A DNA stretch of 64,000 nt. Origin: an uncultured Hellea sp. GTDB lineage: Bacteria; Pseudomonadota; Alphaproteobacteria; Caulobacterales; Maricaulaceae. The notes below the pieces were generated by a model, which did not search any database, had not been told where the DNA came from, and saw nothing but the letters and a program-made list of their open reading frames with translations. The DNA is taken from NCBI GenBank assembly GCA_938007935.1, contig CALLMD010000022.1, positions 1-64,000 on the forward strand, written 5' to 3'. How positions within the stretch are numbered: the stretch's first letter is position 1; each line of letters opens with the position of its first letter. Shown here piece after piece: positions 20,068 through 37,472 of this stretch. Made by a program: the position numbers and the translations under genes.

Positions 20068-20787
20068 ATGAGTACTTCATCATCTCCAAAAGGTAGCGTT
20101 TGGATTATCAGCTCGGCGCTTTTGGCGCTTGGATTTATTATCGGGAGCTTTCTGATAAGTGGTTTGGTCCTCAAGGCCCGTCTAGCCGACCGAAGCGTAA
20201 CAGTTCGCGGACTGGCGGAACGAGAGGTATTGGCCGATCTGGCGACATGGACTTTGGCTTATTCGGCGCAGGGCGATAGTCTCAAAGCCGTTCAGGCCGA
20301 TATTGATAAAGATACGCAAGCAATAAATGCTTTTTTCAAAGAGCTGGGATTTGCTACTGACGAGCTACGTCCAACTGGCGTTGGTGTAAATCAACGTAAT
20401 AATAATTACGGAAAACCAGTTATCAATATCCGTCAAAGGATTACTTTGCGTACGGATAATATTACGCTCGCGCAAAAGGCTGTCTCTCAGCAATTCGAAC
20501 TCATACGCCGCGGCGTGGTTCTCGAAGATGGTTCAGGCATGACCTACACGTTTACCAAACTTGATGAAGTCAAACCCGAAATGGTGGCCGAAGCGACGCA
20601 AGATGCCCGCCGCGCCGCCCAGCAATTCGCTCAGGACTCAGGGGCAAATGTTGGCGGTATAAAGTCTGCCACACAGGGCTATTTTTCAATCCGTTCGCGC
20701 GACGGCGATAGAGGCGGCTATGGCGTTTCAGATACGCCTTATAAAAAGGTGCGCGTTGTAACCACAGTCAATTTTTACTTGCGTTAA
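20068..20787 (+). CDS. SIMPL-domain (DUF541) periplasmic protein, membrane-anchored
   Basis: A 239-residue protein with one N-terminal hydrophobic segment (about 10-32) that serves as an uncleaved signal anchor, followed by the SIMPL/DUF541 domain (SVTVRGLAEREVLADLATW at its start). The family forms periplasmic assemblies; molecular function is poorly known. I chose the ATG at 20068 because AAAGGAAG lies just upstream; a GTG five codons earlier would overlap that site. It ends convergently, overlapping the hydrolase gene by 4 bases. Confidence 0.88.
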   Translation: MSTSSSPKGSVWIISSALLALGFIIGSFLISGLVLKARLADRSVTVRGLAEREVLADLATWTLAYSAQGDSLKAVQADIDKDTQAINAFFKELGFATDELRPTGVGVNQRNNNYGKPVINIRQRITLRTDNITLAQKAVSQQFELIRRGVVLEDGSGMTYTFTKLDEVKPEMVAEATQDARRAAQQFAQDSGANVGGIKSATQGYFSIRSRDGDRGGYGVSDTPYKKVRVVTTVNFYLR

Positions 20788-21650
20788 AGCTTCGTTATCC
20801 AAGTGTCTAACTTTTTGCAAAGCGGCTCAATCGAGCTAAAGGCGAAGTGGTTATGACCTGTTGTGTCTAAGATTACAGTTTGTGTGCTGGGGGCGTTTAT
20901 AAAGGCCTTAGGTACGTCTTTCGGGGGAATGCCGATGTCATGATCCCCAAAAGCAAAGAATAGAGGGACGTCTATGGCTTCGGCTTCTTTGCGAAAGCTA
21001 CCGCGCATCATGCTCATCATCGCGCCCGCTGCGTTCATTTCACAGGCTACGTCACAAAGACGTTGATTAAGCTCGGTTGTTTCGCCGCCAAATACGATAG
21101 ACTCGCCACTTGGGCCGTTACCTGCAGGGATCATAGAGCGTCCAAATTTGGCGAGGGAAAGGGCCTCGATATCGCGGGCAAAGTTTTCGGGTTTATTTAT
21201 GTAAGCTTTTTCGTCCTCAGTGAGGCCCCAATCCAATCCACCTGCGCTGGAGCCAAAAAGTCCAAGGCCTTTAAAAGGGGCATGAAGGCCCTGCATAAGC
21301 ATGATCATCATCCCGCCTAAGGAATGTCCGATGCCGATAATTGGGTTTTGTATATCCAATTGCTTTAAGGCCTTAGCCATGTATCCTGCCGTATCGCGAG
21401 GCGTATAAAAGATGTGACTATCTGGCATAGGGTTAGAAGCAATACCCGGATGATCCATTGTGATGACGTCATATCCAAGGGCGCACATACGGTCAGTGAA
21501 ACTAAATTCTGGCGCAAGATCAAAATAGTCTTTAGACAGTCCGCCCCCTGGAAGGCAAAACAAGGTAATATTTTTGGGCGTAGTCTTAGCTCTGTAGAGA
21601 TCAGCCCGTAAGGTGAAACTATCGAAACTAGCTGTAAGCTCGGCTGACAT
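20784..21650 (-). CDS. Alpha/beta-hydrolase
   Basis: A 288-residue serine hydrolase. The oxyanion region LPGGGLSKDYFD is near residue 33, the nucleophile elbow is GHSLGG (near 108), the acid lies in FAFGDHDIG (near 238) and the His in TGHNHF (near 268). No signal peptide. Its ATG shares one base with the ferredoxin stop (TAATG), so the two are translated together. The position at the edge of the CoA-catabolic cluster suggests an ester, lactone or ring-opening hydrolase for the same substrate, which is inference. Confidence 0.88.
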   Translation of the reverse strand: MSAELTASFDSFTLRADLYRAKTTPKNITLFCLPGGGLSKDYFDLAPEFSFTDRMCALGYDVITMDHPGIASNPMPDSHIFYTPRDTAGYMAKALKQLDIQNPIIGIGHSLGGMMIMLMQGLHAPFKGLGLFGSSAGGLDWGLTEDEKAYINKPENFARDIEALSLAKFGRSMIPAGNGPSGESIVFGGETTELNQRLCDVACEMNAAGAMMSMMRGSFRKEAEAIDVPLFFAFGDHDIGIPPKDVPKAFINAPSTQTVILDTTGHNHFAFSSIEPLCKKLDTWITKL

Positions 21651-21964
21651 TAAGCCTCGGGTGCAATGGCAATCTTAATCCCGTCATGAGCCTGCGTGAC
21701 TTTGACTTGGCAGGAAAGACGAGAGCCGTCTTTGATTTCGACGAAATCAGCAAGGCCTTCCAGCATATAGCCTTCATCTTCTGTGTGTTCGCCAGCCATC
21801 TGTTTATCAGGAAAATAGACATGACATGTCCCGCAACTGGCAACACCGCCGCATGTGCCTTCGACAAGGCCCGCATCGCGTAGAGCCTCCATCATCATCG
21901 TGCCTGGGCTGGCCTCCACGGTTTTATCTTCGCCATCGATGGTGGTGATGAGAAGTTCTGCCAT
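21650..21964 (-). CDS. Adrenodoxin/putidaredoxin-type [2Fe-2S] ferredoxin
   Basis: A 104-residue electron carrier. The cluster ligands are in GTCGGVASCGTCHVYF (C-x5-C-x2-C, about residues 39-48) and LSCQV (near 85), the spacing used by ferredoxins that serve P450s and some Rieske oxygenases. A longer in-frame extension to 22135 exists but has no family support, while the ATG at 21964 has AAAGAGGAC upstream. It is divergent from the large CaiB gene across an operator shared with the TetR gene, so it is the probable redox partner of the cluster P450 (32133) and perhaps the KshA-like oxygenase (33558). No ferredoxin reductase gene is in the window. Confidence 0.95.
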   Translation of the reverse strand: MAELLITTIDGEDKTVEASPGTMMMEALRDAGLVEGTCGGVASCGTCHVYFPDKQMAGEHTEDEGYMLEGLADFVEIKDGSRLSCQVKVTQAHDGIKIAIAPEA

Positions 21965-22010
21965 ATTTGTCCTCTTTATGGTTGACTGCAAAGGTGCTAG
22001 CCCTATTTTA

Positions 22011-22023
22011 CGAACAGCGTTCG
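22011..22023. promoter_or_regulatory. Operator CGAAC-AGC-GTTCG (site 1)
   Basis: A 13-bp perfect inverted repeat in the divergent ferredoxin/CaiB promoter region, followed by GAAAG. The same core with 7-bp arms occurs at 31403-31419 upstream of the TetR gene. The reuse of the palindrome in two divergent promoters of one cluster marks it as the probable TetR-family operator. Confidence 0.65.
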
Positions 22024-22064
22024 GAAAGTCCCTAACGCGGTCAATATAAATGCGCAAGGTGATT

Positions 22065-24479
22065 ATGACAGGTGTTCTCGGCGGTGTAAAAGTCCTTGAT
22101 TTATCGTGGGGGATAGCAGGGCCGATGACGGGCATGTTACTGGCTGATCACGGGGCGGATGTAACCCGTATTGAACGGCCTCAAGGCGACCCTTTTGCTG
22201 GGCTCTTGGGATATAAGGTCTGGCACCGCGGAAAGAAAAATGCAGTTCTGGATTTAACAGCTGCCGATGATTTGTCTGTTTTTAAAAAGCTCGTCGCTGA
22301 GGCTGATGTTCTAATTGAAAGTATGTCGCCGGGGAAAACCAAGACACTGGGCATTGATTATGAGGCCATGGCCAGGCTTAATCCCAAACTGATATACTGC
22401 TCTATAACGGGTTACGGTGAAGATGATGACCGCCCGGGTTATGACGCGCTTGTCGCGGCCAGCTCTGGCCTGCAATGGGAACAACGCGGCTGGCCCGAAG
22501 GCGCGCTCAATCATATGGCCGGAGAAGAAGACCCTTTTGCTGATGCGGTGGAGATCGACCCCAATCATGTGCAAGGGGCCAACCGTGAAGGCCCGCTTCA
22601 TGTGGCCTCAAAATGGCCGAGTATGGGGGCTTTTTTCTCGGCTTTAACAGGTATATCTGCCGCGCTTTTTGCCCGCGAGAGAACAGGGCGCGGCCAGAAA
22701 GTCAGTACCTCATTACAACAAGGCGCTATGGCCTGCGGGAGCGGCGTGTGGCAACGCGCTGAAGACATTCATGCACAGGGCTTTAACACATGGATTATGG
22801 GTAGCCGTTCGCCCAAGGGCCATTTTCAATGCGCCGATGGCAAATGGCTTCATAATTGGGTGCCTAATCCACGTTTTATTTTAGAGGCGTCTAAAGGGGA
22901 AAAGCTTGATGCTTCGCCTGATTTGACGGTGCAAAATGATCCTGACCGTTTTGGTATTGGCCCTGAAGAACTTCTCGTTATGGCGCATTATCAACCGATT
23001 TTGGCAGATGCGGTTAAAAAGTTTAATTGCGATGATTGGGTACAAGCCGCTGCTGACGGTAATATGACGATGCAGCCCTGCCGGACTTTAGAAGACAGCC
23101 TGACAGATCCCTTATTAATGGGGGATAATGCGGTTGTGACAGTTGATGACCCAGAACTTGGACCGATTAATCAGGTCGGCATCACTTACCGCTTAGAGAA
23201 TAGCCAAGGCGTTATTCAAGGTCCCATGCGGGTTACAGGGGCTGATACCGAGGCTGTGAAAGCTTATGCAGCGGGATTGCCTGATACAGAAACTCATAGC
23301 CTGCCTGCTACGCCCACAGGCAAAGGGCCGCTTGACGGTATCCGTGTGCTGGATTTGGGCCTTGCCATTGCGGGGCCATTTGGCTGTCAGCTGCTCTCGG
23401 ATATGGGCGCTGAAGTTATCAAAATGAATACGCTCTGGGATAGTTTTTGGCATCGTTGCCATATTGCTTATATGGCTAATCGCGGTAAGCGGTCTTTGGC
23501 AGTGATGCTCAAACACCCCAAAGGCATGGAGGCGATTATGAAAACAATCGCGACCTGTGATGTGGTGCAGCATAATATGCGTTATCCCGCCACCCAAAGA
23601 TTGGGCTTGGACTATGATAGCCTTAAAGAGAAGTTCCCGCGTTTGATTTATTGTCACTCGCGCGGCTTTGAAGAAGGGCCACGTAAAAATTTACCTGGGA
23701 ATGATCAAACTGGGGCCTGCCTTGCTGGCGTTCAGCACGAAGACGGCGCGCTCCATGCGGGGGCAGGGACACATCCTTTCTGGTCCCTTACGTCACTTGG
23801 CGATACTGGAAATGGGTTTCTGACGGCTGTGGGTATTTGTAATGCGTTGATGGAGCGCGAACGTACTGGTAAAGGCCAATTTGTTGATACCTCTATCGTC
23901 AATGCGTGTTTGCTTAATACGAGTTACGGCGTTGCTAAGCCTGATGGATCTGCGGTTGAGCGGCCACGGCTGAATAGCGATCAAACGGGTTACGGGGATT
24001 ATTACCGTCTCTATCAATGCGCGGATGGCCACTGGATACAAGTTGCCGCGATTAATAAGGCGCAACGCTCAGCTTTGGACGCGCTGGCAGGGGATAATAA
24101 AATCTCTGCCTTTGCAGGACGGTCCTCAGCCGAATTAATGACGGACTTGGCCAAAGCTAACATCCCCGCCGCGATTTCAGATAGTGAAGCTTCTCGCAAG
24201 CTATTTGATAATGCGGATTACAAAGCCAAAAACTGGACGACGGAATATCATCATCCTTATGTTGGTAAGCTTGAACAAATCGGTGCGACCTATGATTTGT
24301 CGGATACGCCTGCTGTGATGCAATCTGCCCCGCTTATTGTCGGGGATGAAACCAAAGCGATTTTAGAAGAGCTTGGATATTCACATGATGAAATTTTAGC
24401 GATGGCCAATGAAACAGCCATACTGTGTGACCCACCTTTGCCGGGCCAAAAAGAAATGAAAAACCCTTGGGGCTTGTGA
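22065..24479 (+). CDS. Double-domain CaiB/BaiF (class III) CoA-transferase
   Basis: An 804-residue tandem fusion of two CaiB/BaiF CoA-transferase modules (about 1-405 and 415-800), each starting with the family opening (VKVLDLSWGIAGPMTGMLLADHGAD and VLDLGLAIAGPFGCQLLSDMGAE in parts). The catalytic Asp that forms the acyl anhydride is present only in module 2 (GQFVDTSIV, near residue 608); module 1 has GQKVSTSL at that place, Ser for Asp (near 214). So one module is probably catalytic and the other structural. It transfers CoA between carboxylates. I use the ATG at 22065, preceded by GCAAGG, rather than 22050. First gene of the plus-strand operon. Confidence 0.9.
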   Translation: MTGVLGGVKVLDLSWGIAGPMTGMLLADHGADVTRIERPQGDPFAGLLGYKVWHRGKKNAVLDLTAADDLSVFKKLVAEADVLIESMSPGKTKTLGIDYEAMARLNPKLIYCSITGYGEDDDRPGYDALVAASSGLQWEQRGWPEGALNHMAGEEDPFADAVEIDPNHVQGANREGPLHVASKWPSMGAFFSALTGISAALFARERTGRGQKVSTSLQQGAMACGSGVWQRAEDIHAQGFNTWIMGSRSPKGHFQCADGKWLHNWVPNPRFILEASKGEKLDASPDLTVQNDPDRFGIGPEELLVMAHYQPILADAVKKFNCDDWVQAAADGNMTMQPCRTLEDSLTDPLLMGDNAVVTVDDPELGPINQVGITYRLENSQGVIQGPMRVTGADTEAVKAYAAGLPDTETHSLPATPTGKGPLDGIRVLDLGLAIAGPFGCQLLSDMGAEVIKMNTLWDSFWHRCHIAYMANRGKRSLAVMLKHPKGMEAIMKTIATCDVVQHNMRYPATQRLGLDYDSLKEKFPRLIYCHSRGFEEGPRKNLPGNDQTGACLAGVQHEDGALHAGAGTHPFWSLTSLGDTGNGFLTAVGICNALMERERTGKGQFVDTSIVNACLLNTSYGVAKPDGSAVERPRLNSDQTGYGDYYRLYQCADGHWIQVAAINKAQRSALDALAGDNKISAFAGRSSAELMTDLAKANIPAAISDSEASRKLFDNADYKAKNWTTEYHHPYVGKLEQIGATYDLSDTPAVMQSAPLIVGDETKAILEELGYSHDEILAMANETAILCDPPLPGQKEMKNPWGL

Positions 24480-24537: not shown

Positions 24538-24567
24538 TCTCAATGGTGACGGAACTGAAAGAAAAAT

Positions 24568-26114: not shown

Positions 26115-26116
26115 AT

Positions 26117-26422
26117 ATGGGTGTTGTTTTTAAACCGGGCGTAAAGCTCTCAAGCACGGTCTGTAAAACACAGATTATGGTACTGCGCGTGCCTGCGGTT
26201 GAGCTTGATATTAGCTGCGGCGGCGCGCCGATGCAAATCGGCGATCCAGCCGAACTTGGTGACATGAGCGGAGAAAATTCAGGCACAATGGTCGGCAAAC
26301 GCTATACTGATGCCGATGAGACTATGGAGTTTTTGTGCACGCGCGGCGGAGATGGCACGCTCGCCATTGCAGGATATGTCATAGATATAAAAGCGGCTAA
26401 GAAACTGCCTAGCTCTGACTAG
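26117..26422 (+). CDS. Small conserved cysteine-containing protein of the CoA-ligase operon
   Basis: A 101-residue soluble protein of unknown function. It has FKPGVKLSSTVCKTQIMVLR at its start, then ELDISCGGAPM and a C-terminal FLCTRGGDGTL, giving three Cys. Similar short proteins with a K-S-x-VC-T-[EQ]-V/I-M start and a CGG-PM motif are, as far as I recall, found directly before acyl-CoA ligases in actinobacterial and sphingomonad catabolic operons. It sits with 2 bases before and none after, between the thiolase-like and ligase genes, so it is surely co-expressed and may bind metal or the ligase. Confidence 0.75.
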   Translation: MGVVFKPGVKLSSTVCKTQIMVLRVPAVELDISCGGAPMQIGDPAELGDMSGENSGTMVGKRYTDADETMEFLCTRGGDGTLAIAGYVIDIKAAKKLPSSD

Positions 26423-27871
26423 ATGAATATTCACCTGCTTCTTCAAATGGCTAGCGAAGCCATGGGTTACCGCGAAGCGGTGGTTTGTGGTAACATGCGC
26501 CTGACATTTGAAGAGCTTGGTGAGGCCGCAAAATCTGTTGCGGCGAAACTTAAAACTGGTGAAAAACTTGGCTATCTGGCAGAAGGCCATCCCGCATTTC
26601 CAGCGGCTTTATTCGGCGCGGCCTTAGCCGGAACGCCTTTTGTTTCGCTCAATTACCGCCTTTCAGACGAACAATTAGCGGCGCAGATTGCTCGTATTAC
26701 GCCTGCGCAATTTATCACCGATACAAGCACTAAGGCCGAGGGCCTCACACTCATGAGTCCAGAGGCTTCTATCATTGGCCCCGCTTTTGACGGCGAAGCG
26801 CCAAATGAGGACGGCGCTATAGCGGTCGAGCTCTTTACAAGCGGGACAACGGGCGAGCCAAAATCCGCTGTGCTGCGTCATTCCAACCTTATGGCCTATA
26901 TTTTTGGCACGGTTGAATTTATGAGTGCAGAGGAAGATGAAGCCGCGCTCTTAACAGTGCCGCCTTACCATATAGCGGGCATTGCCGCTGTGCTCAGCTC
27001 GACCTATGCAGGGCGGCGTATGGTACAGCTTCCGAGTTTTACGCCCGAGGCTTGGATAAATCTGGCGCGAAAAGAAAACGTCACTAATGCTTTTCTTGTT
27101 CCGACTATGTTGCAGCGTATTGTCGATTATGCGGGTGATAAACTCGACTTACCGCACATGCGAAATATCGCCTATGGCGGGGGAAAGATGCCGCGCCAAA
27201 CGATTGAGGCGGCTATGGCTCTCTTGCCTCACGTCAATTTTACTAATGCTTATGGGCTGACCGAAACAAGTGCCACAATATGTATGCTTAGCCCTGATGA
27301 TCACCGCGAAGCTTTTACCAGCGATGATCCGGCTATCAAACGCAGGCTTGGCTCTGCGGGTATTCCTATTCCAACGATCGAGCTTCAAATCCGCAGTGAA
27401 GAGGGCGCTATATGCGCCGCAGAAGAAACTGGACTTGTTTGGGTGCGAGGCGATCAAGTGAGCGGCGAATATAAAGGCCTTGGGTCTCAGCTCGATGATG
27501 AGGGTTGGTTCCTCACCAAAGATCGGGGGTTTGTGGATAGCGGTGGTTATCTCTTTATAGATGGCCGCGCCGATGACGTTATCGTGCGGGGCGGGGAGAA
27601 TATATCGCCCGGCGAAATCGAAGATGTGCTGCGAAGTCACACCGCTATCAAAGATGTGGCGGCTGTGGCTGTGGCCGATACAGAATGGGGCGAGACTGTC
27701 GGCATAGCTATTGTCTGCAAATCGGAAGTTAGCGATGCAGAGCTTTGCGATCTTGTGCGCGCCAATTTGCGTTCCTCTCGTGTGCCCTCTGTGATAAAAC
27801 GCATGGATGAGCTTCCTTATAATGAAACAGGCAAACTCCTGCGCCGTGTTATCAGAGACGGATTTGCCTAA
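26423..27871 (+). CDS. AMP-dependent acyl-CoA ligase
   Basis: A 482-residue member of the ANL superfamily, which activates a carboxylic acid with ATP and then CoA. The phosphate loop is LFTSGTTGEPKSA (near residue 138), the adenine motif YGLTETSA (near 277), the hinge DRGFVDSGGYLFIDGRADD (near 375) and the catalytic Lys lies in ETGKLLRR at the end. The N-terminal part is short (starts MNIHLLLQMASEAMGYREAV), making it about 30-60 residues shorter than typical ligases. It begins on the base after the small Cys protein gene. It is the probable entry step of the cluster. Confidence 0.93.
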   Translation: MNIHLLLQMASEAMGYREAVVCGNMRLTFEELGEAAKSVAAKLKTGEKLGYLAEGHPAFPAALFGAALAGTPFVSLNYRLSDEQLAAQIARITPAQFITDTSTKAEGLTLMSPEASIIGPAFDGEAPNEDGAIAVELFTSGTTGEPKSAVLRHSNLMAYIFGTVEFMSAEEDEAALLTVPPYHIAGIAAVLSSTYAGRRMVQLPSFTPEAWINLARKENVTNAFLVPTMLQRIVDYAGDKLDLPHMRNIAYGGGKMPRQTIEAAMALLPHVNFTNAYGLTETSATICMLSPDDHREAFTSDDPAIKRRLGSAGIPIPTIELQIRSEEGAICAAEETGLVWVRGDQVSGEYKGLGSQLDDEGWFLTKDRGFVDSGGYLFIDGRADDVIVRGGENISPGEIEDVLRSHTAIKDVAAVAVADTEWGETVGIAIVCKSEVSDAELCDLVRANLRSSRVPSVIKRMDELPYNETGKLLRRVIRDGFA

Positions 27872-29129
27872 AACGCATCACGCGGCAAATTATGCCAATC
27901 ATTTGCTCAGCGAATTAGGATGCTTAGAGCAGGTCTCAGCTTTATCAGATCATCCTGCCATTGCGTGGCGGCGCTCAGGTCTATTACGCACCACCAAATT
28001 AATGCTGCCAGTACCACTTACCGCTCATGTTGATGGTGTTTTAATGGCCCTGCGCGCCTTGTGCCCCAAGGCTGATTTACCCGATAGCGGCGCGCTGCTG
28101 ATGGGAGAGCGGGCACGTCTTCGAAAAACGATAAGAAATGGCCGTCAATGCGCGGGCGGATATGGGCGGCTTATGGACACGGCAAATGGCCGTATAGCGG
28201 TTAATCTCGTACGCGAAGATGATTGGGGGCTTATTCCAGCATGGCTGGAAGACGCCGCCGAGGATTGGGACGGCATTACTAAGATAGTCGCAAAAAAAGA
28301 CACAGCTTTTCTAGTAAACCGAGCCGCAGAAATTGGCTTGGCTGTTGCAGAGGATAAATTACCAGATCGACCGAAAAGTTGGGTATCTATTAAGCGATTT
28401 GAAAAGGCACCAAGAAAAACGAACCCACTCATCGTTGACCTTTCAGGTTTATGGGCAGGGCCTTTGGCCTCAAGTTTATTGGCGATGTGCGGGGCCAAGG
28501 TCGTCAAAGTTGAAAGCCCGACACGGCCTGATGGTATGCGACTGGGGCATAAAGGATTTTATGCACTGCTGAATGCCGGCAAAGACTGTGTGGCCTTGAA
28601 TTTTAGAGACGCAAATGATCTGGCCAAGCTTAAAGCATTATTAGACCGCGCCGATATTGTTATCGAAGCCTCACGCCCCCGTGCTTTACGCCAACTCGGT
28701 ATTATCGCAGAAGAATTTGTTTCCCGAAAACCAGGCCAGATTTGGGCGCGGCTTACGGCCTATGGCCAGTCTGCAAACCGTATAGGATTTGGTGATGATA
28801 TTGGCATATCGGCAGGGCTCGCTTCGGTTATGGAGGCCGCTCATGGTGAGCCCTGTTTTGTAGGTGACGCTATAGCGGATCCTGTCAATGGTGTGCATCT
28901 GGCCATTGCTATTCAAGCCATGCTTAGTCAAGGCGGCGGGGCGGTTATCGATATGTCTATGCGTGATGTGCTGCGTCACGCTATCGGGGATGTTGCAAAC
29001 GATTTGAGTATAATCGCTAAAACATGGAAGGCTATTGCGGATGAGGATAAAGCCGCGCTTTATCCTCTGCGAAAACCGCAAGGGGAGGTAAAAGCGCTAG
29101 GGGCGGATAATACGGTTTGGCAATGTTAA
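27807..29129 (+). CDS. CaiB/BaiF CoA-transferase with degenerate N-terminal half
   Basis: A protein of up to 440 residues. The C-terminal half (about 200-400; LIVDLSGLWAGPLASSLLAM, CGAKVVKVESPTRPDG) is a recognisable CaiB/BaiF module, with the catalytic-type Asp in AVIDMSMRD (near residue 385). The N-terminal ~190 residues are only weakly related, with WRRSGL and a hydrophobic PVPLTAHVDGVLMALRAL, and look like a worn remnant of another module. The start is uncertain: ATG 27807, ATG 27822 or GTG 27846; all overlap the ligase gene by 26-65 bases. It also overlaps the amidohydrolase start. Confidence 0.8.
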   Translation: MSFLIMKQANSCAVLSETDLPKTHHAANYANHLLSELGCLEQVSALSDHPAIAWRRSGLLRTTKLMLPVPLTAHVDGVLMALRALCPKADLPDSGALLMGERARLRKTIRNGRQCAGGYGRLMDTANGRIAVNLVREDDWGLIPAWLEDAAEDWDGITKIVAKKDTAFLVNRAAEIGLAVAEDKLPDRPKSWVSIKRFEKAPRKTNPLIVDLSGLWAGPLASSLLAMCGAKVVKVESPTRPDGMRLGHKGFYALLNAGKDCVALNFRDANDLAKLKALLDRADIVIEASRPRALRQLGIIAEEFVSRKPGQIWARLTAYGQSANRIGFGDDIGISAGLASVMEAAHGEPCFVGDAIADPVNGVHLAIAIQAMLSQGGGAVIDMSMRDVLRHAIGDVANDLSIIAKTWKAIADEDKAALYPLRKPQGEVKALGADNTVWQC

Positions 29130-30442
29130 TTCGTAATGTTGACCTAAAAGGAACAATTGTAGATGTGTTCATAACCCAAGGCATTATTCGCGATATTGGC
29201 CCTAATCTCAAATATGATGATAAGATTTTCCTTGAGGGGGCAGGCGGCGCACTCCTTCCCGGACTGCATGATCATCACATCCACTTAAATGCGAGCGCGG
29301 CGGCGATGAATTCCTTAAGTTGCGGTCCGCCAGATATAGTGAATAAAACCGCGCTGATAAATACGCTTCATGCTGCGCAATCGGATTTCATTCGGGGTGT
29401 AGGTTATCATCCAAGTGTTGCAGGTGAAATTGACCGAATGTGGCTGGATGATAACGGCCCAAAAAAACCCATCCGTATCCAGCATCGCAGTGGACGTCTT
29501 TGGATTTTAAATTCATTGGCGATGCAGGCTAATGGATTAATCGTGCCTGCTAATGGACGTTTGCTTGATAGCGATTCGGATATTCGTGGGGCAAGCCAGT
29601 TTCCAGATTTGAAACCGCTGATCAATCGTCTTTTGGGATATGGCATTACGGGGGTGACTGAGGTGACGCCAAGTAATGGCGCAGAGGAGCTTGCGCATTA
29701 TTTAAAACATGCGCAGCCCTTACGACTTTGTATTATGGGCAAGGCAGACTTATCAAATTTGAATGATCCGCATATTGGCCCGCTAAAGCTCCATTATCAT
29801 GACCATAACCTACCGGCCTTGGATGATTTGGCCGCAGAAATAAAAGCCGCTCATAAAGCTGGCCGTAATATGGCGGCGCATTGTGTGACGCGGGCGGAAC
29901 TCATGCTGACTTTGGCCGCAATTGAACAAGCGGGCGTAATGGCAGGAGATAGAATTGAACATGCTGCGATTGCTGATGATGCCACGATAGATTGGATGAA
30001 ACGGCTTGGGGTAATCGTTGTAACACAGCCCAATTTTATAGCCGAACGGGTAAAGGCATATCGCAAAGATGTCCCGCTTAAGGAACATGGTAATTTGTGG
30101 CGTTTAAAGGCCTTCGAAACTGCAGGGCTGCCTATGGCCGCGGGAAGCGATGCGCCATTTGGTGACGCTAATCCATGGGCGGCAATGGCGGCGGCGGTTA
30201 CCCGTCCTAGCGGCTTTGAAGCGGAGGCCGTCTCGCCCGAGACTGCCTTGGCGCTTTACACGAAACCTTGCCATGATGCGGGCGCGCCAGCGCGGCGCGT
30301 TGAGGTGGAGGCTATAGCCGATTTATGCTTGATAGATAGGCCATGGGCAGAGGCTCGTATGAATTTAGGCGATGTTAAAGTCAAAGCCACATGGGTAGGA
30401 GGCAGCTTAGTCTATAATGGCGTCAATGAGGCCCCAGTCTAA
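29123..30442 (+). CDS. Amidohydrolase-superfamily metal hydrolase (YtcJ-like)
   Basis: A 439-residue protein. The metal motif is GLHDHHIHLN (HxH near residues 51-53), later ligands are AAHCVTRAE (His near 250) and RIEHAAI (His near 279), and the catalytic Asp is in AAGSDAPFGDANPW (near 340). These are typical of the YtcJ/DUF3876-type exo-amidohydrolases. The natural bond may be an amide, lactone or ester. The ATG at 29123 overlaps the CaiB stop; a TTG two codons earlier is possible. Its 3' end overlaps the convergent crotonase gene by 36 bases. Confidence 0.87.
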   Translation: MLIRNVDLKGTIVDVFITQGIIRDIGPNLKYDDKIFLEGAGGALLPGLHDHHIHLNASAAAMNSLSCGPPDIVNKTALINTLHAAQSDFIRGVGYHPSVAGEIDRMWLDDNGPKKPIRIQHRSGRLWILNSLAMQANGLIVPANGRLLDSDSDIRGASQFPDLKPLINRLLGYGITGVTEVTPSNGAEELAHYLKHAQPLRLCIMGKADLSNLNDPHIGPLKLHYHDHNLPALDDLAAEIKAAHKAGRNMAAHCVTRAELMLTLAAIEQAGVMAGDRIEHAAIADDATIDWMKRLGVIVVTQPNFIAERVKAYRKDVPLKEHGNLWRLKAFETAGLPMAAGSDAPFGDANPWAAMAAAVTRPSGFEAEAVSPETALALYTKPCHDAGAPARRVEVEAIADLCLIDRPWAEARMNLGDVKVKATWVGGSLVYNGVNEAPV

Positions 30443-31375
30443 GGCTGTTTTTGCGCGAATTTTCTCCATAGATAGCGCCATATAGGCCGTGCGGTGCCGT
30501 CCAATGCGGCGGGGCAGGCTAGCTGTACCTCCGGCGCCCGGAATGAGACCATATTTAAGTTCGGGCAATTGAAACCAGGCCTCTTTTGATGCCGTGATAT
30601 GTTGTCCGAACGCCGCGATTTCAGCTCCCGCGCCAATAGCTGCGCCGTCAACATGGATATGGAGTTTGTCTTGCAACCTTGCGAGCCGCCATGCGGGTAG
30701 ACGTAAGCTGCGCACCCAATGCGCGGTGGCAGGGTCAGAGATTTCACCAAATTCTTCGATAGCTCCGCCAGTTGAAAATGTGCGGCCTGCGCCTGTCAAA
30801 TACACGCGCTCAATTGCGGGGTTGGCCATGGCAAGATCAAGCGCTTCACATAGCGCGTCGCGCATTTCGGTGCCAATGGCATTATGCGTATCTGGGCGGT
30901 TAAAGGCTAGCGAGAGCTGATTGTCAGACATCTCTATTTGTAAATGAGGGTATTCGGAATTGGGTAGTTTTCGTTTTTCATAACCGCTGAGCCATGTTTT
31001 AAATTCTGGCCCTGTTTGCAGCGCCGCATAAGCAAAGCTTTCAGCAGTTAGAGCGTCGGTAAGGGAAAGAGGCTCACTAGCGCGTAAATGCTGCACAAGC
31101 GCCATCGAGGCGAGTGGAGCCTGTATTATATTGTTTGAAATAGTTTCAAGTTTAGTGGTGCTGTCCAAAACAACATCACAGCAAGGAGCAATTGGGACAT
31201 CGCCAATTCCGATAACGGGACAGGGGAGACCGCGTAGCCATTTCGTTAAAAGCTTATCTTCTGGGCCTTGCTCAAAGACGATGAAAGGGTTTTTTGACTG
31301 AGGGCCGAAATGGTCTCGCGCAGGGTGAGACGCCGCCAAATCTCGAATTTCGTTATACGTTAACGGGTTTTGCAT
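30407..31375 (-). CDS. Enoyl-CoA hydratase/isomerase (crotonase) with extra N-terminal domain
   Basis: A 322-residue protein. The crotonase domain is about residues 140-322: LAFNRPDTHNAIG, LTGAGRTFSTGGAIEEF, HVDGAAIGAGAEIAAF and the ELKYGLIPGAGGTASLPRRIG active-site region with a Glu at the start. Ahead of it are about 135 residues that resemble the end part of a second crotonase (APLASMALVQHLRAS, ALTAESFAYAALQTGPEF), so the gene looks like a worn tandem fusion. I use the ATG at 31375 with GGAG five bases upstream; the longer frame to 31411 would run through the operator. Divergent from the TetR gene. Confidence 0.85.
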   Translation of the reverse strand: MQNPLTYNEIRDLAASHPARDHFGPQSKNPFIVFEQGPEDKLLTKWLRGLPCPVIGIGDVPIAPCCDVVLDSTTKLETISNNIIQAPLASMALVQHLRASEPLSLTDALTAESFAYAALQTGPEFKTWLSGYEKRKLPNSEYPHLQIEMSDNQLSLAFNRPDTHNAIGTEMRDALCEALDLAMANPAIERVYLTGAGRTFSTGGAIEEFGEISDPATAHWVRSLRLPAWRLARLQDKLHIHVDGAAIGAGAEIAAFGQHITASKEAWFQLPELKYGLIPGAGGTASLPRRIGRHRTAYMALSMEKIRAKTALDWGLIDAIID

Positions 31376-31402: not shown

Positions 31403-31419
31403 TCCGAACAACGTTCGGA
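31403..31419. promoter_or_regulatory. Operator TCCGAAC-AAC-GTTCGGA (site 2)
   Basis: A perfect 7-bp inverted repeat with a 3-bp centre between the divergent crotonase and TetR starts, ending 9 bases before the TetR ATG. It shares CGAAC-N3-GTTCG with site 1 at 22011-22023. Its position over the TetR leader fits autoregulation together with control of the crotonase gene. Confidence 0.7.
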
Positions 31420-31428
31420 AATGTGTCT

Positions 31429-32133
31429 ATGAGTTCTTCTACAGCTAAAAATTCAGCAAAACAAACGTCATATGGACGTCCGCGTTTATTATCTCATGAA
31501 GAGATTTTGGACGGCGCGGTTGAGTTGGGGCTTGAGGGATTGACGATGAAAAAACTAGCGACCCATCTAAATGTGGGGACAGCTACTTTGTACCAATATT
31601 TCGATAGCCGTAAAACTTTGATGCGGGCCGCCGCCGTACATTCTTTGTCGGACGTTGCGCTTCCTGAAGATAAAGGCCAGCACTGGTCTGATTTGGCTGT
31701 GGAATATGTCCAGAGCTTACAAACATTGCTGGCGGAAAACCCATCCTTCATCCATAGTCACCAGCATTCCGATTATGGATTTGAAGTGCATTTTCGCCTT
31801 ATCGAGCCTTTTCTCACCTCAATGGAACAAAGGGGTTTTGACCCACGGCAGGGTATGGAGGTTTTTAATATAATTGGCATGGCAGCCTTTGCTGGCGCAA
31901 TTGAAACTGTGCGTCACCGCGAATTTGAATTTCAGGACGAAACAATGGAAGTCGTCGCGCGGCGTCAATTTGATCGTTTGGACGCAACAGCCTTTCCGCT
32001 TTTATCGCAAGCCTTTTCAACCTTCACCCAAAGTCCTGAGCAAAAAGTTCACAGCCTATTGCGCGCCGCCTTCACGACTATTGCGCGGGGGCGCGGTGAA
32101 GATGAAGCAAATTTATTTAAGGGTGAGGTGTAA
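31429..32133 (+). CDS. TetR-family transcriptional regulator of the cluster
   Basis: A 234-residue TetR-type repressor: N-terminal helix-turn-helix (about 20-66; LTMKKLATHLNVGTATLYQYF) and a variable ligand-binding C-terminal part with a TetR_C-like layout. The ATG at 31429 has GGAAA upstream, within 12 bases of a perfect inverted repeat; a GTG at 31396 would put the operator inside the gene. It is first in a tightly packed operon (TetR, P450, Rieske, SDR, propeller, VOC) and its stop overlaps the P450 start (TAATG). Ligand is probably a CoA-thioester or the substrate acid; not determined. Confidence 0.93.
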   Translation: MSSSTAKNSAKQTSYGRPRLLSHEEILDGAVELGLEGLTMKKLATHLNVGTATLYQYFDSRKTLMRAAAVHSLSDVALPEDKGQHWSDLAVEYVQSLQTLLAENPSFIHSHQHSDYGFEVHFRLIEPFLTSMEQRGFDPRQGMEVFNIIGMAAFAGAIETVRHREFEFQDETMEVVARRQFDRLDATAFPLLSQAFSTFTQSPEQKVHSLLRAAFTTIARGRGEDEANLFKGEV

Positions 32134-33548: not shown

Positions 33549-33557
33549 GAGACCCTT

Positions 33558-34580
33558 ATGAACGCACCTGTAAATCCTGATCATATCCAAACAGGCGAAG
33601 AGTTAGAGCGCTGTCCATTCCCCATTCCCTATGGATGGTTTTGTGTTCATTTTTCGCATGAGCTAAAGGCTGGCGATATCAAAATTGAAAAAATGTTCGG
33701 GAAGGAATGGGTTTTATTCCGCGGTGAAGATGGATCTGTTGGCATGACAGATCCCTTCTGTCCGCATTTAGGCGCGCATTTAGGTCACGGCGGTAAAGTC
33801 GTCGGCAATAATATCCAATGTCCGTTTCATAATTGGGAGTTTGATAGCGAAGGCTGGTGCAAGAAAATTCCTTACGGCAAAGTGATGCCAGGAGTCGCGC
33901 GTAAACGCGCTATTCTCCAAGCACTTCCCACGATTGAGAAATATGGCGCGATTTGGGCGTGGTATCATCCAAAGGGTGAGGAGCCTAAATGGGAGCTGCC
34001 ATCGCATCCAGAATTTGAGAATGAGGATGAGCATGTTGAAACGAAGTTCCACTCTTGGGATATAGGCACCTGCCTTCAAGAAATGGGAGAAAACTCTGTG
34101 GATACGCCGCATTTGAAATTTCTTCATGGCGCGCCCATCATTCCTGATGTGACCGCCAAAGCTGACGGTCATATTTGGCATTACGACATTATGGACGGCT
34201 ATATTGTTGGCGAAAGTCATGGCCCGGGTCTCGCGCCTAACCGCCATTCGAAAGACGGCGTCTCTATGCTCATGTATGCTATGCCTTCACCTGTGGATGA
34301 GGAATTGTCCCGCGTTCGCATGATGTTTAAATGGAAGAAGTATCCGGAAGGCTCCAAGGAAGCGGCAATAGGTCAGCATCTTTATGAGCATTCTATTGGC
34401 GAAGCCGAAGGGGAAGAATCTGCTGGTTTTGAATCTGTTGACCTCATTGTTTGGGATAATAAAAAATATCGCCCGAAACCGCTTCTTTGTGATGGTGATG
34501 GGCCGATTTTGGCATGGCGTAAATATTTCCGTCAATTCTATGTTGATTTAGATGAAAACGATCCTGCGGTGGCCATGTAG
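33558..34580 (+). CDS. Rieske non-heme iron oxygenase, KshA-like
   Basis: A 340-residue oxygenase component. The Rieske centre is CPHLGAHLGHGG ... CPFHNWEF (C-x-H then C-x2-H, about residues 67-90). The mononuclear iron site is ENSVDTPHLKFLHG (NxxDxxHxxxxH, about 178-191), the form used in 3-ketosteroid 9-alpha-hydroxylase KshA and related terpene/steroid hydroxylases. Electrons come from a separate reductase that is not in this window; the ferredoxin at 21650 may help. GGAGACC precedes the ATG. Together with the P450 it gives the cluster two different monooxygenation steps. Confidence 0.93.
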   Translation: MNAPVNPDHIQTGEELERCPFPIPYGWFCVHFSHELKAGDIKIEKMFGKEWVLFRGEDGSVGMTDPFCPHLGAHLGHGGKVVGNNIQCPFHNWEFDSEGWCKKIPYGKVMPGVARKRAILQALPTIEKYGAIWAWYHPKGEEPKWELPSHPEFENEDEHVETKFHSWDIGTCLQEMGENSVDTPHLKFLHGAPIIPDVTAKADGHIWHYDIMDGYIVGESHGPGLAPNRHSKDGVSMLMYAMPSPVDEELSRVRMMFKWKKYPEGSKEAAIGQHLYEHSIGEAEGEESAGFESVDLIVWDNKKYRPKPLLCDGDGPILAWRKYFRQFYVDLDENDPAVAM

Positions 34581-35371
34581 TGGCAGGTCGTCTCGAAGGT
34601 AAAGTTTGTATCATCACAGGCGCCGCGCGCGGCATGGGCGAAGCCACGGCGCGCCTCTTTGCGGCTGAAGGGGCTAAGGTCGCCTTAGGTGATGTTATGA
34701 TCAAAGAAGGCGAAGCCGCTGCTAAAGATATAGGCGGTGATGCATTTTTTCAAAAATTAGATGTATCTGACGATGAAAATTGGAAACAATTCTCGGGCGC
34801 TGTCCGGGACAAGTTTGGCACTATTGATGTTCTCGTCAATAATGCCGGACTTGTACATTTTACACCGATTGAACATTTTAATCCTGCCGACGCCGATAAG
34901 ATTTTAGGCGTAAATACAGTAGGGCCTATGCTGGGCGCAAAACATGTTGCGCCAATTATGAAAGAGGCAGGGAAAGGTTCTATTGTAAATATCAGTTCCG
35001 TTGACGGGCTTCGTGGTTGTAATGGGCTGACACTTTACACGGCCAGTAAATGGGCTTTGCGCGGGCTTACAAAATCACTCGCTTATGAGCTTGGGACATC
35101 TGGCATCCGCGTAAATTCTGTGCATCCTGGCGGCGTCAATACGCCTATGGGCAATGCGCGCGGACTACCCGCAGAACAACTCTCAGCGGCTTTCTGCCGA
35201 GTGCCATTGCAGCGTATTGGCGAACCCAATGAAATCGCCAACGCCTCGCTTTTCCTCGCCAGTGATGAGGCGAGTTATGTAACTGGCGCGGAGCTGGCCG
35301 TAGATGGGGGTTGGGGCGCGGGTTATTTCCAGCCTGTCTTGCCAGGTGCGCCCGAGGGTCTTCCTCCATAG
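34580..35371 (+). CDS. Short-chain dehydrogenase/reductase
   Basis: A 263-residue classical SDR. Cofactor motif GAARGMGEA (near residue 15), NNAG (near 89), catalytic Ser in NISSVDG (near 139) and YTASK (Tyr/Lys near 153-157). The Asp in ALGDV after the second strand suggests NAD rather than NADP. The GTG start shares one base with the Rieske stop (TAGTG). The likely task is oxidation of the alcohol made by the P450 or Rieske enzyme. Confidence 0.95.
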   Translation: MAGRLEGKVCIITGAARGMGEATARLFAAEGAKVALGDVMIKEGEAAAKDIGGDAFFQKLDVSDDENWKQFSGAVRDKFGTIDVLVNNAGLVHFTPIEHFNPADADKILGVNTVGPMLGAKHVAPIMKEAGKGSIVNISSVDGLRGCNGLTLYTASKWALRGLTKSLAYELGTSGIRVNSVHPGGVNTPMGNARGLPAEQLSAAFCRVPLQRIGEPNEIANASLFLASDEASYVTGAELAVDGGWGAGYFQPVLPGAPEGLPP

Positions 35372-35376
35372 ACAGA

Positions 35377-36969
35377 ATGAAGACGTTCTTTAAATTCGTT
35401 GTTAAAGCCATCCTCATTTTGGCGCTGCTATTGGCGGCCGCGGTAACTTTCTTTAAATGGCGCATGGACCATGAAGTTGCCGCTGTAACACCTTTGGCGA
35501 TGAGTACAGAAGATGTTGATTTAACGCCATCTATTGATCCGAACTTTATTCCTCAAATATTGCCCCCTACAGGTGAACCGCAACATCCCTTTATGGCAGT
35601 GACAGATACAAGCGCCATGCATGCTGGAAGTTGGGAGAATGATGTCCATCCTGCCAAGGCTGTAAGTTCAACAGATGTTGAGATTATTACCCGGCGTGCT
35701 GGTGGTGGAGCTGCCCGACAATGCGCGACTTTTACATTTATAAAGGCAGGACACCCGCTCATCCTCTGCGGGGGCTTTACGAGTTTCCGGTTGCAACTGG
35801 TTGATAAAGACAGCCTCGAATTGCTCGCCATGTATGATCTGCCCATGCGGCCTTCAACGTTTGAGGCTATGGTCAAGAAAGACACGGATATTATCTTCAC
35901 TGATACTTCGGGCGGGGCCTACATGTATCTGGATAATGAAGACCGCGCTGTCCTCGCCGATGCTAAGCAACGTATTCGCCATATCAAAGCCGAACAGACC
36001 GACAACGGTAAATGGCAATTTCGCGAAACGGATAGCTGGGACATGACGGAGTATGTTCCCAATGATTGCTATAATTGGAATAATTTGCGCCCCTCTGGTG
36101 AGTGCGACGGCATTACTACCGTCATGCCAGACTATAATGGATTGCTCTGGTGGGTGACACGTAATGGACGGGTAGGGTCATTGAATACTGAAACCGGCGA
36201 AGTGGTCGCCACAGACCTAGGAGGCGAAGAAATTCAAAACTCTTTCGCTTTGGATGAAGCCGGCGCTTACATCGTGTCAGATCATGCGATGTATCATATG
36301 AGGCTCGTGGACGGCATGCCCACAGAGCAATGGCGCGTAGCTTATGATCGCGGCTCTGGCCGCAAGGTCGGGTCTATCAATCAAGGTAGTGGAACCTCAC
36401 CGAGCCTGTTTGGAGAAGATTATCTGACCTTCACCGACAATGCAGATGATCATATGAATATCTATGTCGCGCGGCGCGGAGAATTAGGCGAGGGCGAAAG
36501 CCGCGTGATTTGCAAAGTGCCCGTCTTTACCAAGGGCGCGAGTGTAACTGATAATTCCATGATTGCTTATGGCCGCTCAATCATTTTGGAGAATAATTCT
36601 GGCTATACGAACTCAATGATCCAAAAGGATTATAATGATGTCGAAGGCGGCGTAGTTCGCGTTGACGTATTGGAGGATGAAAGCGGTTGCGAAACTGTGT
36701 GGTCAAATCCGCTTAAAGTGCCTTCCGTCGTGCCAAAGCTTTCACTCGGAAATGGCATTGCTTATTTCTATAGTTTTGACCTTCTTGAAAATGGTGATCG
36801 TCTGTGGTCGCTTGTCGGTCTTGATTTTGAAACGGGCAAAGAAGCCGTCCGCATCCCAACAGGCACGGGCGAGGCTTTCAATAATAATTGGGCGAGCATC
36901 GCTATTGCACCTAATGGCGATACATGGGTCGGCACGCGCCAAGGCGTTTTGAAGGTACGGGAAAAATGA
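35377..36969 (+). CDS. Membrane-anchored beta-propeller-like protein of unknown function
   Basis: A 530-residue protein with a single N-terminal membrane segment (FFKFVVKAILILALLLAAAV, about 4-25), so it probably faces the periplasm. The rest is rich in beta strands with recurrent short W/Y-containing and GxV turns (LLWWVTRNGRVGSLNTETGE, DRLWSLVGLDFETGKE), and ends in APNGDTWVGTRQGVLKV, consistent with a six- to eight-bladed propeller like PQQ or SMP-30 proteins. Pairs of Cys are spread through the chain. I do not know the family. The ATG at 35377 is chosen over 35311 because the hydrophobic anchor begins there. It overlaps the VOC gene (ATGA). Confidence 0.8.
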   Translation: MKTFFKFVVKAILILALLLAAAVTFFKWRMDHEVAAVTPLAMSTEDVDLTPSIDPNFIPQILPPTGEPQHPFMAVTDTSAMHAGSWENDVHPAKAVSSTDVEIITRRAGGGAARQCATFTFIKAGHPLILCGGFTSFRLQLVDKDSLELLAMYDLPMRPSTFEAMVKKDTDIIFTDTSGGAYMYLDNEDRAVLADAKQRIRHIKAEQTDNGKWQFRETDSWDMTEYVPNDCYNWNNLRPSGECDGITTVMPDYNGLLWWVTRNGRVGSLNTETGEVVATDLGGEEIQNSFALDEAGAYIVSDHAMYHMRLVDGMPTEQWRVAYDRGSGRKVGSINQGSGTSPSLFGEDYLTFTDNADDHMNIYVARRGELGEGESRVICKVPVFTKGASVTDNSMIAYGRSIILENNSGYTNSMIQKDYNDVEGGVVRVDVLEDESGCETVWSNPLKVPSVVPKLSLGNGIAYFYSFDLLENGDRLWSLVGLDFETGKEAVRIPTGTGEAFNNNWASIAIAPNGDTWVGTRQGVLKVREK

Positions 36970-37472
36970 TAAATCTTGGCCCGATAACACAGCTTGGTTA
37001 TGTGACCGATGATCTTGATAAAACGGCGACGGCTTGGACAAAACTAGGCGTTGGTCCTTTTACTAAAATGTCAGGCGTCAAAATGCCCGCGACGATGGAT
37101 GGCAAGACGGTTGAAATACTTATTGATCTTGCGCTGGCCTATCAAGGCGATGTCCAAATCGAACTTATTCAGCCCTTATGTGGTAGCGCTTCACCCTATC
37201 TTGAAAATAAACAGGCTGGGATATGGGGTGCACATCACACCCAATTCACCGTTGAAGATATAGACGCCGCAATTGCGCAATGCGAAGCGGCAGGTATGGA
37301 GATGGTGTGTGAAATCATATCCGGCGGTGGACGTTATATTTATATGCGCGGCGCGGCGGGGTGGATTGAACTCACCGCGCCAAATTCTGGCCTCGACATG
37401 CTATACGGGATGATCCGTAAAAGCTGCGCGGAATGGGACGGGAAAACGGTTTGGAACGTTTTGGGAGGCTAG
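36966..37472 (+). CDS. VOC-superfamily protein, last gene of the cluster operon
   Basis: A 168-residue glyoxalase-fold protein with two modules: GPITQLGYVTDDLDKTATAW at the start and GAHHTQFTVEDIDAAIAQCE in the middle, ending WIELTAPN. The layout resembles methylmalonyl-CoA epimerase-type and related VOC lyases. Starts 4 bases inside the propeller gene and overlaps the convergent ruvX end by 4 bases. Likely an isomerase or lyase of the same pathway. Confidence 0.85.
   Translation: MINLGPITQLGYVTDDLDKTATAWTKLGVGPFTKMSGVKMPATMDGKTVEILIDLALAYQGDVQIELIQPLCGSASPYLENKQAGIWGAHHTQFTVEDIDAAIAQCEAAGMEMVCEIISGGGRYIYMRGAAGWIELTAPNSGLDMLYGMIRKSCAEWDGKTVWNVLGG

What the first reader, a model, noticed from the sequence alone, without database searches (positions are those of the whole stretch)
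20784..37472. A 17-kb CoA-dependent catabolic cluster with two oxygenases and an unknown substrate
The genes together give activation (ligase, two CaiB), C-C cleavage (DUF35 plus thiolase/Ltp), hydration (crotonase), two different hydroxylations (P450, KshA-like Rieske), dehydrogenation (SDR), hydrolysis (amidohydrolase, alpha/beta hydrolase) and electron supply (ferredoxin). Parts match known steroid or terpenoid pathways, but the amidohydrolase, anchored propeller and three partly degenerate double-domain enzymes are not in the classical steroid gene sets I know. It may describe an uncharacterised pathway. No acyl-CoA dehydrogenase or ferredoxin reductase is present, so it depends on other loci.
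Basis: partly seen in the sequence, partly recalled or inferred. Interest (0 to 1): 0.7.

Follow-up and report, generated by a model that had tools for sequence, protein, structure and literature searches.

The report
Marine steroid-catabolism cluster with rearranged enzymes
A block of about sixteen genes in a marine bacterium appears to be the side-chain-handling arm of a known steroid-eating pathway, and two of its enzymes look as if their parts have been shuffled into a new order, with a function still unknown.

Summary
Window 20784-37472 encodes 16 genes (A-P), including a CoA ligase, a fused double CaiB, a DUF35/Ltp2-like pair, a P450, a KshA-like Rieske, an SDR and an amidohydrolase. No acyl-CoA dehydrogenase was found.

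The set recurs in Hellea-type marine Alphaproteobacteria. In Hellea balneolensis and one relative it shares a contig with a 9,10-seco steroid island; the window's genome carries such genes on other contigs. Of 17 genomes whose locus carries the P450, 16 have an HsaC-like gene. Best reading: a steroid side-chain arm; substrate unproven.

The new part: genes F-J are a module seen in Proteobacteria, Myxococcota and Rhodococcus. The 'degenerate' J (crotonase) and H (CaiB) look like tandem copies truncated in complementary places, C-terminal-type material now lying first; catalytic residues are invariant in the C-terminal copy. Evidence is good for J, moderate for H. The reaction of H-I-J is unknown.

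The parts
20784..21650 (-). A: alpha/beta hydrolase
   Evidence: PF00561 44.4 bits; same place in relatives, about 50-63% identity
21650..21964 (-). B: 2Fe-2S ferredoxin (start by orthologue length), likely electron carrier for L or M (inference)
   Evidence: PF00111; orthologues of median 106 aa beside C
22065..24479 (+). C: fused double class III CoA-transferase (CaiB-CaiB), start by orthologue length
   Evidence: PF02515, two stretches, 443 bits; two adjacent separate CaiB genes in a Rhodococcus plasmid region
24568..24960 (+). D: stand-alone DUF35 protein (Zn ribbon + OB), without a MaoC domain
   Evidence: PF12172 and PF01796
24957..26114 (+). E: Ltp2-like protein of the thiolase superfamily, candidate retro-aldolase
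   Evidence: PRK07855 469.7 bits, cut-off 469; PDB 6ok1, E 1.8e-113
26117..26422 (+). F: 101-aa protein of unknown function, part of the widespread module
   Evidence: no Pfam or NCBIfam match; found in 48 of 80 loci
26423..27871 (+). G: acyl-CoA ligase
   Evidence: PF00501 and PF13193; found in 48 of 80 loci
27807..29129 (+). H: rearranged class III CoA-transferase; CaiB N-half at residues 209-390, C-terminal-type material in front of it
29117..30442 (+). I: Amidohydro_3 metal hydrolase, candidate metal ligands intact
   Evidence: PF07969 91.8 bits; H54, H56, K224, H255, H282, D345 invariant in 10 sequences
30407..31375 (-). J: rearranged crotonase; core at residues 155-333, crotonase C-terminal-type helices in front of it (start by orthologue length; residue numbers follow the longer ORF that begins at 31411)
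31429..32133 (+). K: TetR-family regulator, divergent from J (start by orthologue length)
   Evidence: PF00440
32133..33548 (+). L: cytochrome P450; 88-94% identical in 7, 73-75% in 2 and 42.5% in 1 of the 10 fetched loci with a match
   Evidence: PF00067 191 bits; top PDB rows CYP51
33558..34580 (+). M: Rieske oxygenase, KshA-like paralogue
   Evidence: PF00355 and PF19298 77.6 bits; another KshA-like gene of the genome scores 179.6
34580..35371 (+). N: short-chain dehydrogenase
   Evidence: PF13561 226 bits
35377..36969 (+). O: protein with a hydrophobic N-terminus, accessory, fold unverified (start by orthologue length)
   Evidence: no Pfam, NCBIfam or PDB match; 7 of 80 loci
36966..37472 (+). 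P: glyoxalase-superfamily protein, weakly methylmalonyl-CoA-epimerase-like, accessory (start by orthologue length)
   Evidence: PF13669; TIGR03081 at E 1e-6, far below cut-off; 3 of 80 loci

Best explanation
The cluster is the side-chain (or side-group) arm of a 9,10-seco steroid catabolic system in Hellea-type marine Alphaproteobacteria. Proposed order, all steps inferred: P450 L and Rieske M, fed by ferredoxin B, hydroxylate the steroid; SDR N oxidises an alcohol; ligase G or the double CaiB C makes the CoA thioester; crotonase J hydrates or dehydrates; the Ltp2-like protein E with DUF35 partner D cleaves the C-C bond, releasing a short acyl-CoA and a keto-steroid that goes to the nucleus genes elsewhere in the genome; H and I act as a salvage or hydrolysis pair (CoA transfer by H; hydrolysis of a cyclic ester or amide by metal enzyme I). 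Shown: gene content, synteny, physical or genomic linkage to HsaA/HsaC/KshA/FadD3-type genes, intact catalytic motifs, and (by profile statistics and confident models, no experimental structure) the rearranged architecture of J and, less firmly, H. Not shown: substrate, order of steps, expression.
For: E scores 469.7 bits against PRK07855 (cut-off 469); its best PDB match is 6ok1 (382 bits), and its Y294 and Y344 align to Tyr there. HsaC-like, KshA-like and cluster genes share one contig in G007 (H. balneolensis) and in G001, and occur on C12, C14 and C22 of the window genome. In the window genome the HsaC-like gene sits with a FadD3-family ligase (658.2 bits, cut-off 657), an HsaA-like oxygenase (318.7, cut-off 450), acetaldehyde dehydrogenase and 4-hydroxy-2-oxovalerate aldolase, the last two over cut-off. 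HsaC at E <= 1e-50 occurs in 16 of 17 genomes of P450-bearing loci. In the order sample it occurs in 9 of the 10 genomes with a strong H match (E <= 1e-80; the window genome is one of them), against 34 of 398 overall. M carries the KshA_C domain.
Against: D lacks the MaoC domain of ChsH2, and no MaoC hydratase or acyl-CoA dehydrogenase is in the cluster. No HsaC hit in any genome searched reaches the curated cut-off (225 of 450 bits in the window genome), so that name rests on neighbours. F-J also occurs where no HsaC match was found (23 of 49 genomes), and some of the 26 matches there are partial and lower-scoring and may be other extradiol dioxygenases. The PDB rows for L name no known sterol side-chain P450 of bacteria. 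L063 lacks the ligase at this place. Three HsaC-positive members of the same family (G010, G023, G141) have no H match at 1e-20.
Confidence: 0.6

Rival explanations
1. The cluster degrades a non-steroid polycyclic acid (a di- or triterpenoid, for example); proximity to steroid genes reflects clustering of catabolic islands.
For: H-I-J occurs among other catabolic genes in the Rhodococcus DK180 and Sphingobium RAC03 plasmids and beside mycofactocin genes in a Streptomyces plasmid; 23 of 49 genomes with the module lack an HsaC match at 1e-50.
Against: The P450-bearing form nearly always shares a genome with HsaC (16 of 17), and E is closer to 6ok1 than to any other PDB thiolase.
Confidence: 0.25
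2. H and J are ordinary enzymes carrying unrelated N-terminal accessory domains, not rearranged CaiB and crotonase folds.
For: Single-sequence matches of the N-termini are weak (best 12.9 bits for H; only 2 of 64 at 4 bits or more for J). A first crotonase profile from 4 sequences gave one N-terminal hit in 65, outside the C-terminal region. hhalign probability was only 35-37%. VIA rows for J span residues 153-334 only. The rotation test for H was weak: 5, 14 and 8 of 60 at three settings.
Against: All 25 J N-termini with 0 bits or more fall in profile positions 180-266, the crotonase C-terminal region (shuffles average 1.05, of which 0.17 there); all 29 such H N-termini fall in CaiB positions 130-340 (shuffles 1.07, 0.68 there). 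In all 65 J proteins the core match ends at profile position 186-197 of 266 and 0-18 residues follow. hhalign P was 3.5e-4 and 7.1e-5 in two runs.
Confidence: 0.2
3. The cluster serves side-chain removal from C5 bile acids, by the route still unknown for Sphingomonadaceae.
For: PMC8399759 (passages) says Sal1, FadA5, Sad and Sal2/Ltp2 homologues are absent in Sphingobium Chol11 and relatives and that the route is unknown; a cholate-induced cluster of Caenibius contains an amidohydrolase (PMC12882949, section 17).
Against: That review reports no Ltp2 homologue there, whereas this cluster has an Ltp2-like gene. The Caenibius cluster has a monooxygenase, an ACAD pair, MaoC and a CoA ligase, and the section describes no CaiB or crotonase. 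Orthology of the two amidohydrolases was not tested.
Confidence: 0.15

Closest known systems
igr-type Ltp2-ChsH2 steroid side-chain aldolase system (Actinobacteria)
   Same: Ltp2-like protein next to a DUF35 protein, with a P450 in the cluster
   Different: DUF35 stands alone, no MaoC pair, no ACAD, and a P450 whose top PDB rows are CYP51. The igr gene set is recalled.
BbsEF/BbsAB benzylsuccinate enzymes
   Same: Paired CaiB units, and a DUF35-like protein with a thiolase-superfamily partner; NF053627 and NF053628 matched weakly
   Different: Scores far below cut-offs (26.5 of 250; 98.6 of 750); oxygenases in the cluster
bsd I bile-salt cluster of Caenibius tardaugens (PMC12882949, section 17 read)
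   Same: TetR, amidohydrolase, CoA ligase, alpha/beta hydrolase, a monooxygenase
   Different: It has ACAD subunits and MaoC; no double CaiB, rearranged crotonase or Ltp2/DUF35 pair is described in that section
9,10-seco steroid pathway
   Same: Nucleus-type genes are in the same genome, and on the same contig in two relatives
   Different: This cluster is an added arm; three HsaC-positive relatives have no H match at 1e-20

Membership tests
Ltp2-DUF35 steroid retro-aldolase | Ltp2-type thiolase-superfamily protein | tested here: met
   469.7 bits against PRK07855 (cut-off 469), best PDB match 6ok1. That PRK07855 and 6ok1 stand for Ltp2 is recalled; the records say 'lipid-transfer protein'.
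Ltp2-DUF35 steroid retro-aldolase | Two active-site tyrosines (recalled, paper not held) | tested here: met
   Y294 and Y344 align to Tyr in 6ok1 and are invariant in 5 sequences
Ltp2-DUF35 steroid retro-aldolase | DUF35 fused to a MaoC hydratase (ChsH2) | tested here: not met
   D is 130 aa, Zn ribbon plus OB fold only
KshA 3-ketosteroid 9alpha-hydroxylase (M) | Rieske plus KshA_C domains | tested here: met
   PF00355 and PF19298 above cut-off
KshA 3-ketosteroid 9alpha-hydroxylase (M) | Best KshA candidate of its genome | tested here: not met
   77.1 bits, against 179.6 and 94.6 for two others in G000
Sterol side-chain P450 (CYP125/CYP142) (L) | Closest to CYP125/142 | tested here: inconclusive
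   37 PDB sequences at E <= 1e-20, none named CYP125/142; names include CYP51, CYP46A1, CYP120, CYP3A; no tree was built
Class III CoA-transferase (H) | Catalytic Asp | tested here: met
   D358 invariant in 47 sequences (the window and 46 of 59 orthologues, chosen by length and source); aligned column is D in 40 of 45 ordinary CaiBs
Class III CoA-transferase (H) | Canonical domain order in one chain | tested here: not met
   The main match (CaiB positions about 4-12 to 184-253) follows N-terminal stretches that match positions 130-340 in 29 of 60; weak match by match
Crotonase (J) | Two catalytic Glu | tested here: met
   E264 and E284 invariant in 56 sequences (the window and 55 of 64 orthologues); their role is recalled
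Crotonase (J) | C-terminal helices after the core | tested here: not met
   0-18 residues follow the core in 65 of 65; four helices at residues 85-143 of the model lie in front of it
Amidohydro_3 (I) | HxH, Lys, His, His, Asp metal site | tested here: met
   H54, H56, K224, H255, H282, D345 invariant in 10 sequences; assignment as ligands is recalled
bsd I-type bile-salt cluster | ACAD pair and MaoC in the cluster | tested here: not met
   None among the 16 proteins

The most novel reading that the evidence does not exclude
F-G-H-I-J is a previously undescribed CoA-dependent enzyme assembly, spread across several phyla, in which a crotonase and a class III CoA-transferase were both rebuilt by tandem duplication and complementary truncation, and which works with a metal amidohydrolase to open a lactone or ring. 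In Hellea it was recruited into what would be an aerobic sterol side-chain pathway of Proteobacteria.
Probability: 0.3. Interest if true: 0.78.

Novelty: new variant of a known kind. Interest (0 to 1): 0.58.

Why it matters
Steroid-degrading potential of Hyphomonadaceae, and Hellea-assigned hits in sponge metagenomes, are already in print (PMC5790920, passages), but the passages I saw do not describe this cluster. A 2016 survey tied the inability of Proteobacteria to use cholesterol to the absence of CYP125/142 orthologues (PMC4810484, passages). A conserved P450/Rieske/Ltp2-like arm in a named marine strain makes that question testable. The F-J module gives a second question: what reaction needs a rearranged crotonase, a rearranged CoA-transferase and an amidohydrolase side by side in such different bacteria.

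Tried and rejected
Rejected: M as the genome's main KshA; H and J as decayed enzymes (catalytic residues invariant, confident models); the F-J module as strictly steroid-bound (HsaC match in 26 of 49 genomes, two of them P450-bearing; in 1 of the 6 order genomes with middling H matches, E 1e-32 to 1e-48).

Led nowhere: PDB match for O at E <= 1 (none); PDB match for C at E <= 1e-40 (none), so the two copies of C were not checked residue by residue; the alignment is unreliable for copy 1, which by eye seems to lack the catalytic Asp. By eye the N-terminal copy of H also lacks it; not tested formally. A first crotonase profile from 4 sequences gave one N-terminal hit in 65, outside the C-terminal region; it was replaced by one from 35. 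Paper searches, listings only: (amidohydrolase, CoA-transferase, Rieske, P450, steroid degradation, gene cluster) gave 0; (resin acids) and one search gave nothing used; one search gave 1 paper with one mention of each term. Rearranged crotonase or CaiB: 12 of 20 listed, none holding 'circular permutation'; 15 of 388 listed, none holding crotonase or CaiB; 3 papers, judged by title and start of abstract, not opened. No coordinates were available, so the packing of the N-terminal segments was not measured. Absence of a fold from the Foldseek or VIA lists was not used as evidence.
Full report
WHAT IS THERE. A and B run left, C to I right, J left and K to P right. I and J overlap tail to tail by 36 bases. 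Upstream lies thymidylate synthase among others; downstream is RuvX.

IT IS A CONSERVED UNIT. A search with O found orthologues at 76-87% in five of 60 relatives, and the fetched neighbourhoods, with further ones found through H, show the same gene order. Loci with named contigs come from Hellea balneolensis, other Hellea MAGs, Sphingomonadaceae or Sphingomonadales MAGs, Alpha proteobacterium IMCC14465 and a Rhodobiaceae MAG; the last two contigs are short and show only part of the set, and in L078 and L080 extra sequence lies between K and L. Of the fetched relatives with a P450 L match, 7 have 88-94% identity, 2 have 73-75% and 1 (L059, another family) 42.5%. O and P are often absent. L063 lacks the ligase at its place. 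With L as query, 3 of 385 genomes of the class, the window's included, match at 1e-120.

IT BELONGS WITH STEROID GENES. HsaC and KshA_C models were searched in ten genomes. The window genome has an HsaC-like gene on C12 and two further KshA-like genes on C14; the cluster is on C22, so distance is unknown. Around HsaC in the window genome are a FadD3-family ligase (658.2 bits, cut-off 657), an HsaA-like oxygenase (318.7, cut-off 450), acetaldehyde dehydrogenase and 4-hydroxy-2-oxovalerate aldolase; counterparts lie in the same order in G007 and G001. No HsaC hit reaches the model cut-off of 450 bits, so that identity rests on context. In the order sample (398 genomes) 9 of the 10 genomes with a strong H match (E <= 1e-80, window genome included) have HsaC at 1e-50, against 34 of 398 overall; the exception, G302, is 65% complete. 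Among the 80 named loci, 17 carry a P450 at 60% identity or more, and 16 of those 17 genomes have HsaC; the exception is L076. The two counts share at least eight genomes and neither is corrected for ancestry. Three HsaC-positive members of the window's family (G010, G023, G141) have no H match at 1e-20, which fits an add-on arm.

WHAT THE PARTS SUGGEST. E is the strongest clue: its best PDB match is 6ok1 (382 bits), and two tyrosines that I recall as catalytic in Ltp2 are kept. D supplies the DUF35 partner but no MaoC hydratase, so the hydratase would have to be J or lie elsewhere (inference). The top PDB rows for L are CYP51. M is a KshA-like paralogue, not the best KshA candidate of the genome. 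Sulfatase-type genes lie near: an S1-type arylsulfatase next to the C12 genes of the window genome, and a relative of the SdsA1 alkylsulfatase near A in nine cluster-bearing loci, judged from one of them by PDB and one by Pfam, with three more distant members elsewhere. That hints at sulfated steroids but proves nothing.

THE F-J MODULE. Amidohydrolase I was used to scan named genomes: 270 relatives, best 80 kept. Of these 80, 79 have H or J nearby and 62 have H, I and J; F and G are in 48 each (thresholds 34% identity, 40% coverage, 60 bits; many contigs are cut short). Titles include Sphingobium, Novosphingobium, Steroidobacter, Halieaceae and Myxococcota. A plasmid search gave 15 records, 10 of them Rhodococcus and 2 Streptomyces; I opened 5. 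Four of the five have H, I and J (L150 showed no J), and only Rhodococcus DK180 also has F and a close G, with two adjacent CaiB genes and aromatic-type genes. Of 49 genomes with the module, 26 had an HsaC-like match, two of them P450-bearing and some with partial, lower-scoring matches that may be other extradiol dioxygenases. So the module is not steroid-specific.

REARRANGED ENZYMES. In all 65 J proteins the crotonase core match ends at profile position 186-197 of 266, and 0-18 residues (median 2) follow it. N-terminal segments of 64 J proteins, scored alone, gave 25 with 0 bits or more, all in profile positions 180-266; shuffled versions averaged 1.05, of which 0.17 in that range. Only 2 of 64 reached 4 bits. 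Profile comparison gave P 3.5e-4 (probability 37%) and, without realignment, P 7.1e-5 (35%) over a longer, looser alignment. Moving the N-terminal segment behind the core raised the score by 5.0 bits on average (shuffles 0.16), beat all 60 shuffles in 26 of 65, and stretched the match past position 230 in 45 of 65 (1.3% of shuffles). An earlier profile from 4 sequences showed none of this. For H, 29 of 60 N-terminal segments scored 0 bits or more, all within CaiB positions 130-340 (shuffles 1.07, 0.68 in range), up to 12.9 bits; the rotation test was weaker (5, 14 and 8 of 60 at three settings). Many of these sequences are close relatives, so the counts overstate independence. AlphaFold2 models are confident (H pLDDT 93.6, pTM 0.92; J 94.2, 0.91). 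VIA aligns J 153-334 with crotonase residues 2-183 (5zai_A, Z 22.9, rmsd 2.2, 181 aligned) and H 87-440 with Rv3272 (5yiy_B, Z 22.2, rmsd 2.8, 217 aligned; the range gives the ends only). The catalytic Glu pair of J and the Asp of H are invariant in 56 and 47 sequences. I read both as products of tandem duplication followed by complementary loss (inference). The fused double CaiB C shows that CaiB duplication exists in this very cluster.

MECHANISM AND LIMITS. The best-supported statement is 'steroid side-chain or side-group arm'. The sequence of steps, the role of H-I-J and the substrate are inference. A lactone-salvage role for I with CoA re-activation by H or G and dehydration by J is my guess.

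LITERATURE. PMC5790920 (passages) already reports steroid-degradation potential in Hyphomonadaceae and Hellea-assigned hits in sponge metagenomes. PMC4810484 (passages) reports no CYP125/142 orthologues in the Proteobacteria it surveyed. PMC8399759 (passages) calls side-chain degradation in Sphingomonadaceae unknown. PMC12882949 (passages and section 17) describes a different cholate-induced cluster with an amidohydrolase. The listings of searches showed no paper that I recognised as describing this cluster or a rearranged crotonase/CaiB pair; I opened only the four papers named, and the library lacks most subscription journals.

Facts were mended (overlap of the two co-occurrence counts, the 42.5% P450, the nine sulfatase loci not all Hellea, plasmid regions opened, both hhalign runs, J core ends recounted); none required a change of the odds.

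Noticed in passing
L177:8416-10008 (window genome, contig C12): S1-type arylsulfatase beside the steroid nucleus-type genes, 89% identical to one in H. balneolensis.
   Followed up: partly
L066:266-1705 and eight other cluster-bearing loci (L067, L068, L070, L072, L073, L075, L077, L096): Metallo-beta-lactamase-fold protein related to the SdsA1 alkylsulfatase near gene A; not beside A in the window.
   Followed up: partly
window 5504-6679: Indoleamine 2,3-dioxygenase family protein (PF01231, 271.5 bits) on the minus strand.
   Followed up: no
window 11994-13388: A second P450 20 kb upstream, better matched to the albaflavenone monooxygenase model than L is (174 against 112.6 bits), both far below its cut-off of 700.
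   Followed up: no
L085, L086 (IMCC14465) and L087: Genomes or MAGs of only 1.6-1.9 Mb hold P450 L, I and J (H seen in L086 and L087) and an HsaC-like gene.
   Followed up: no
L147 (Streptomyces plasmid): H-I-J lies directly beside a run of mycofactocin genes mftA-G and mftR.
   Followed up: no
L113: A contig titled Klebsiella pneumoniae MAG carries G, J, H and I; the label looks like a binning or naming error.
   Followed up: no
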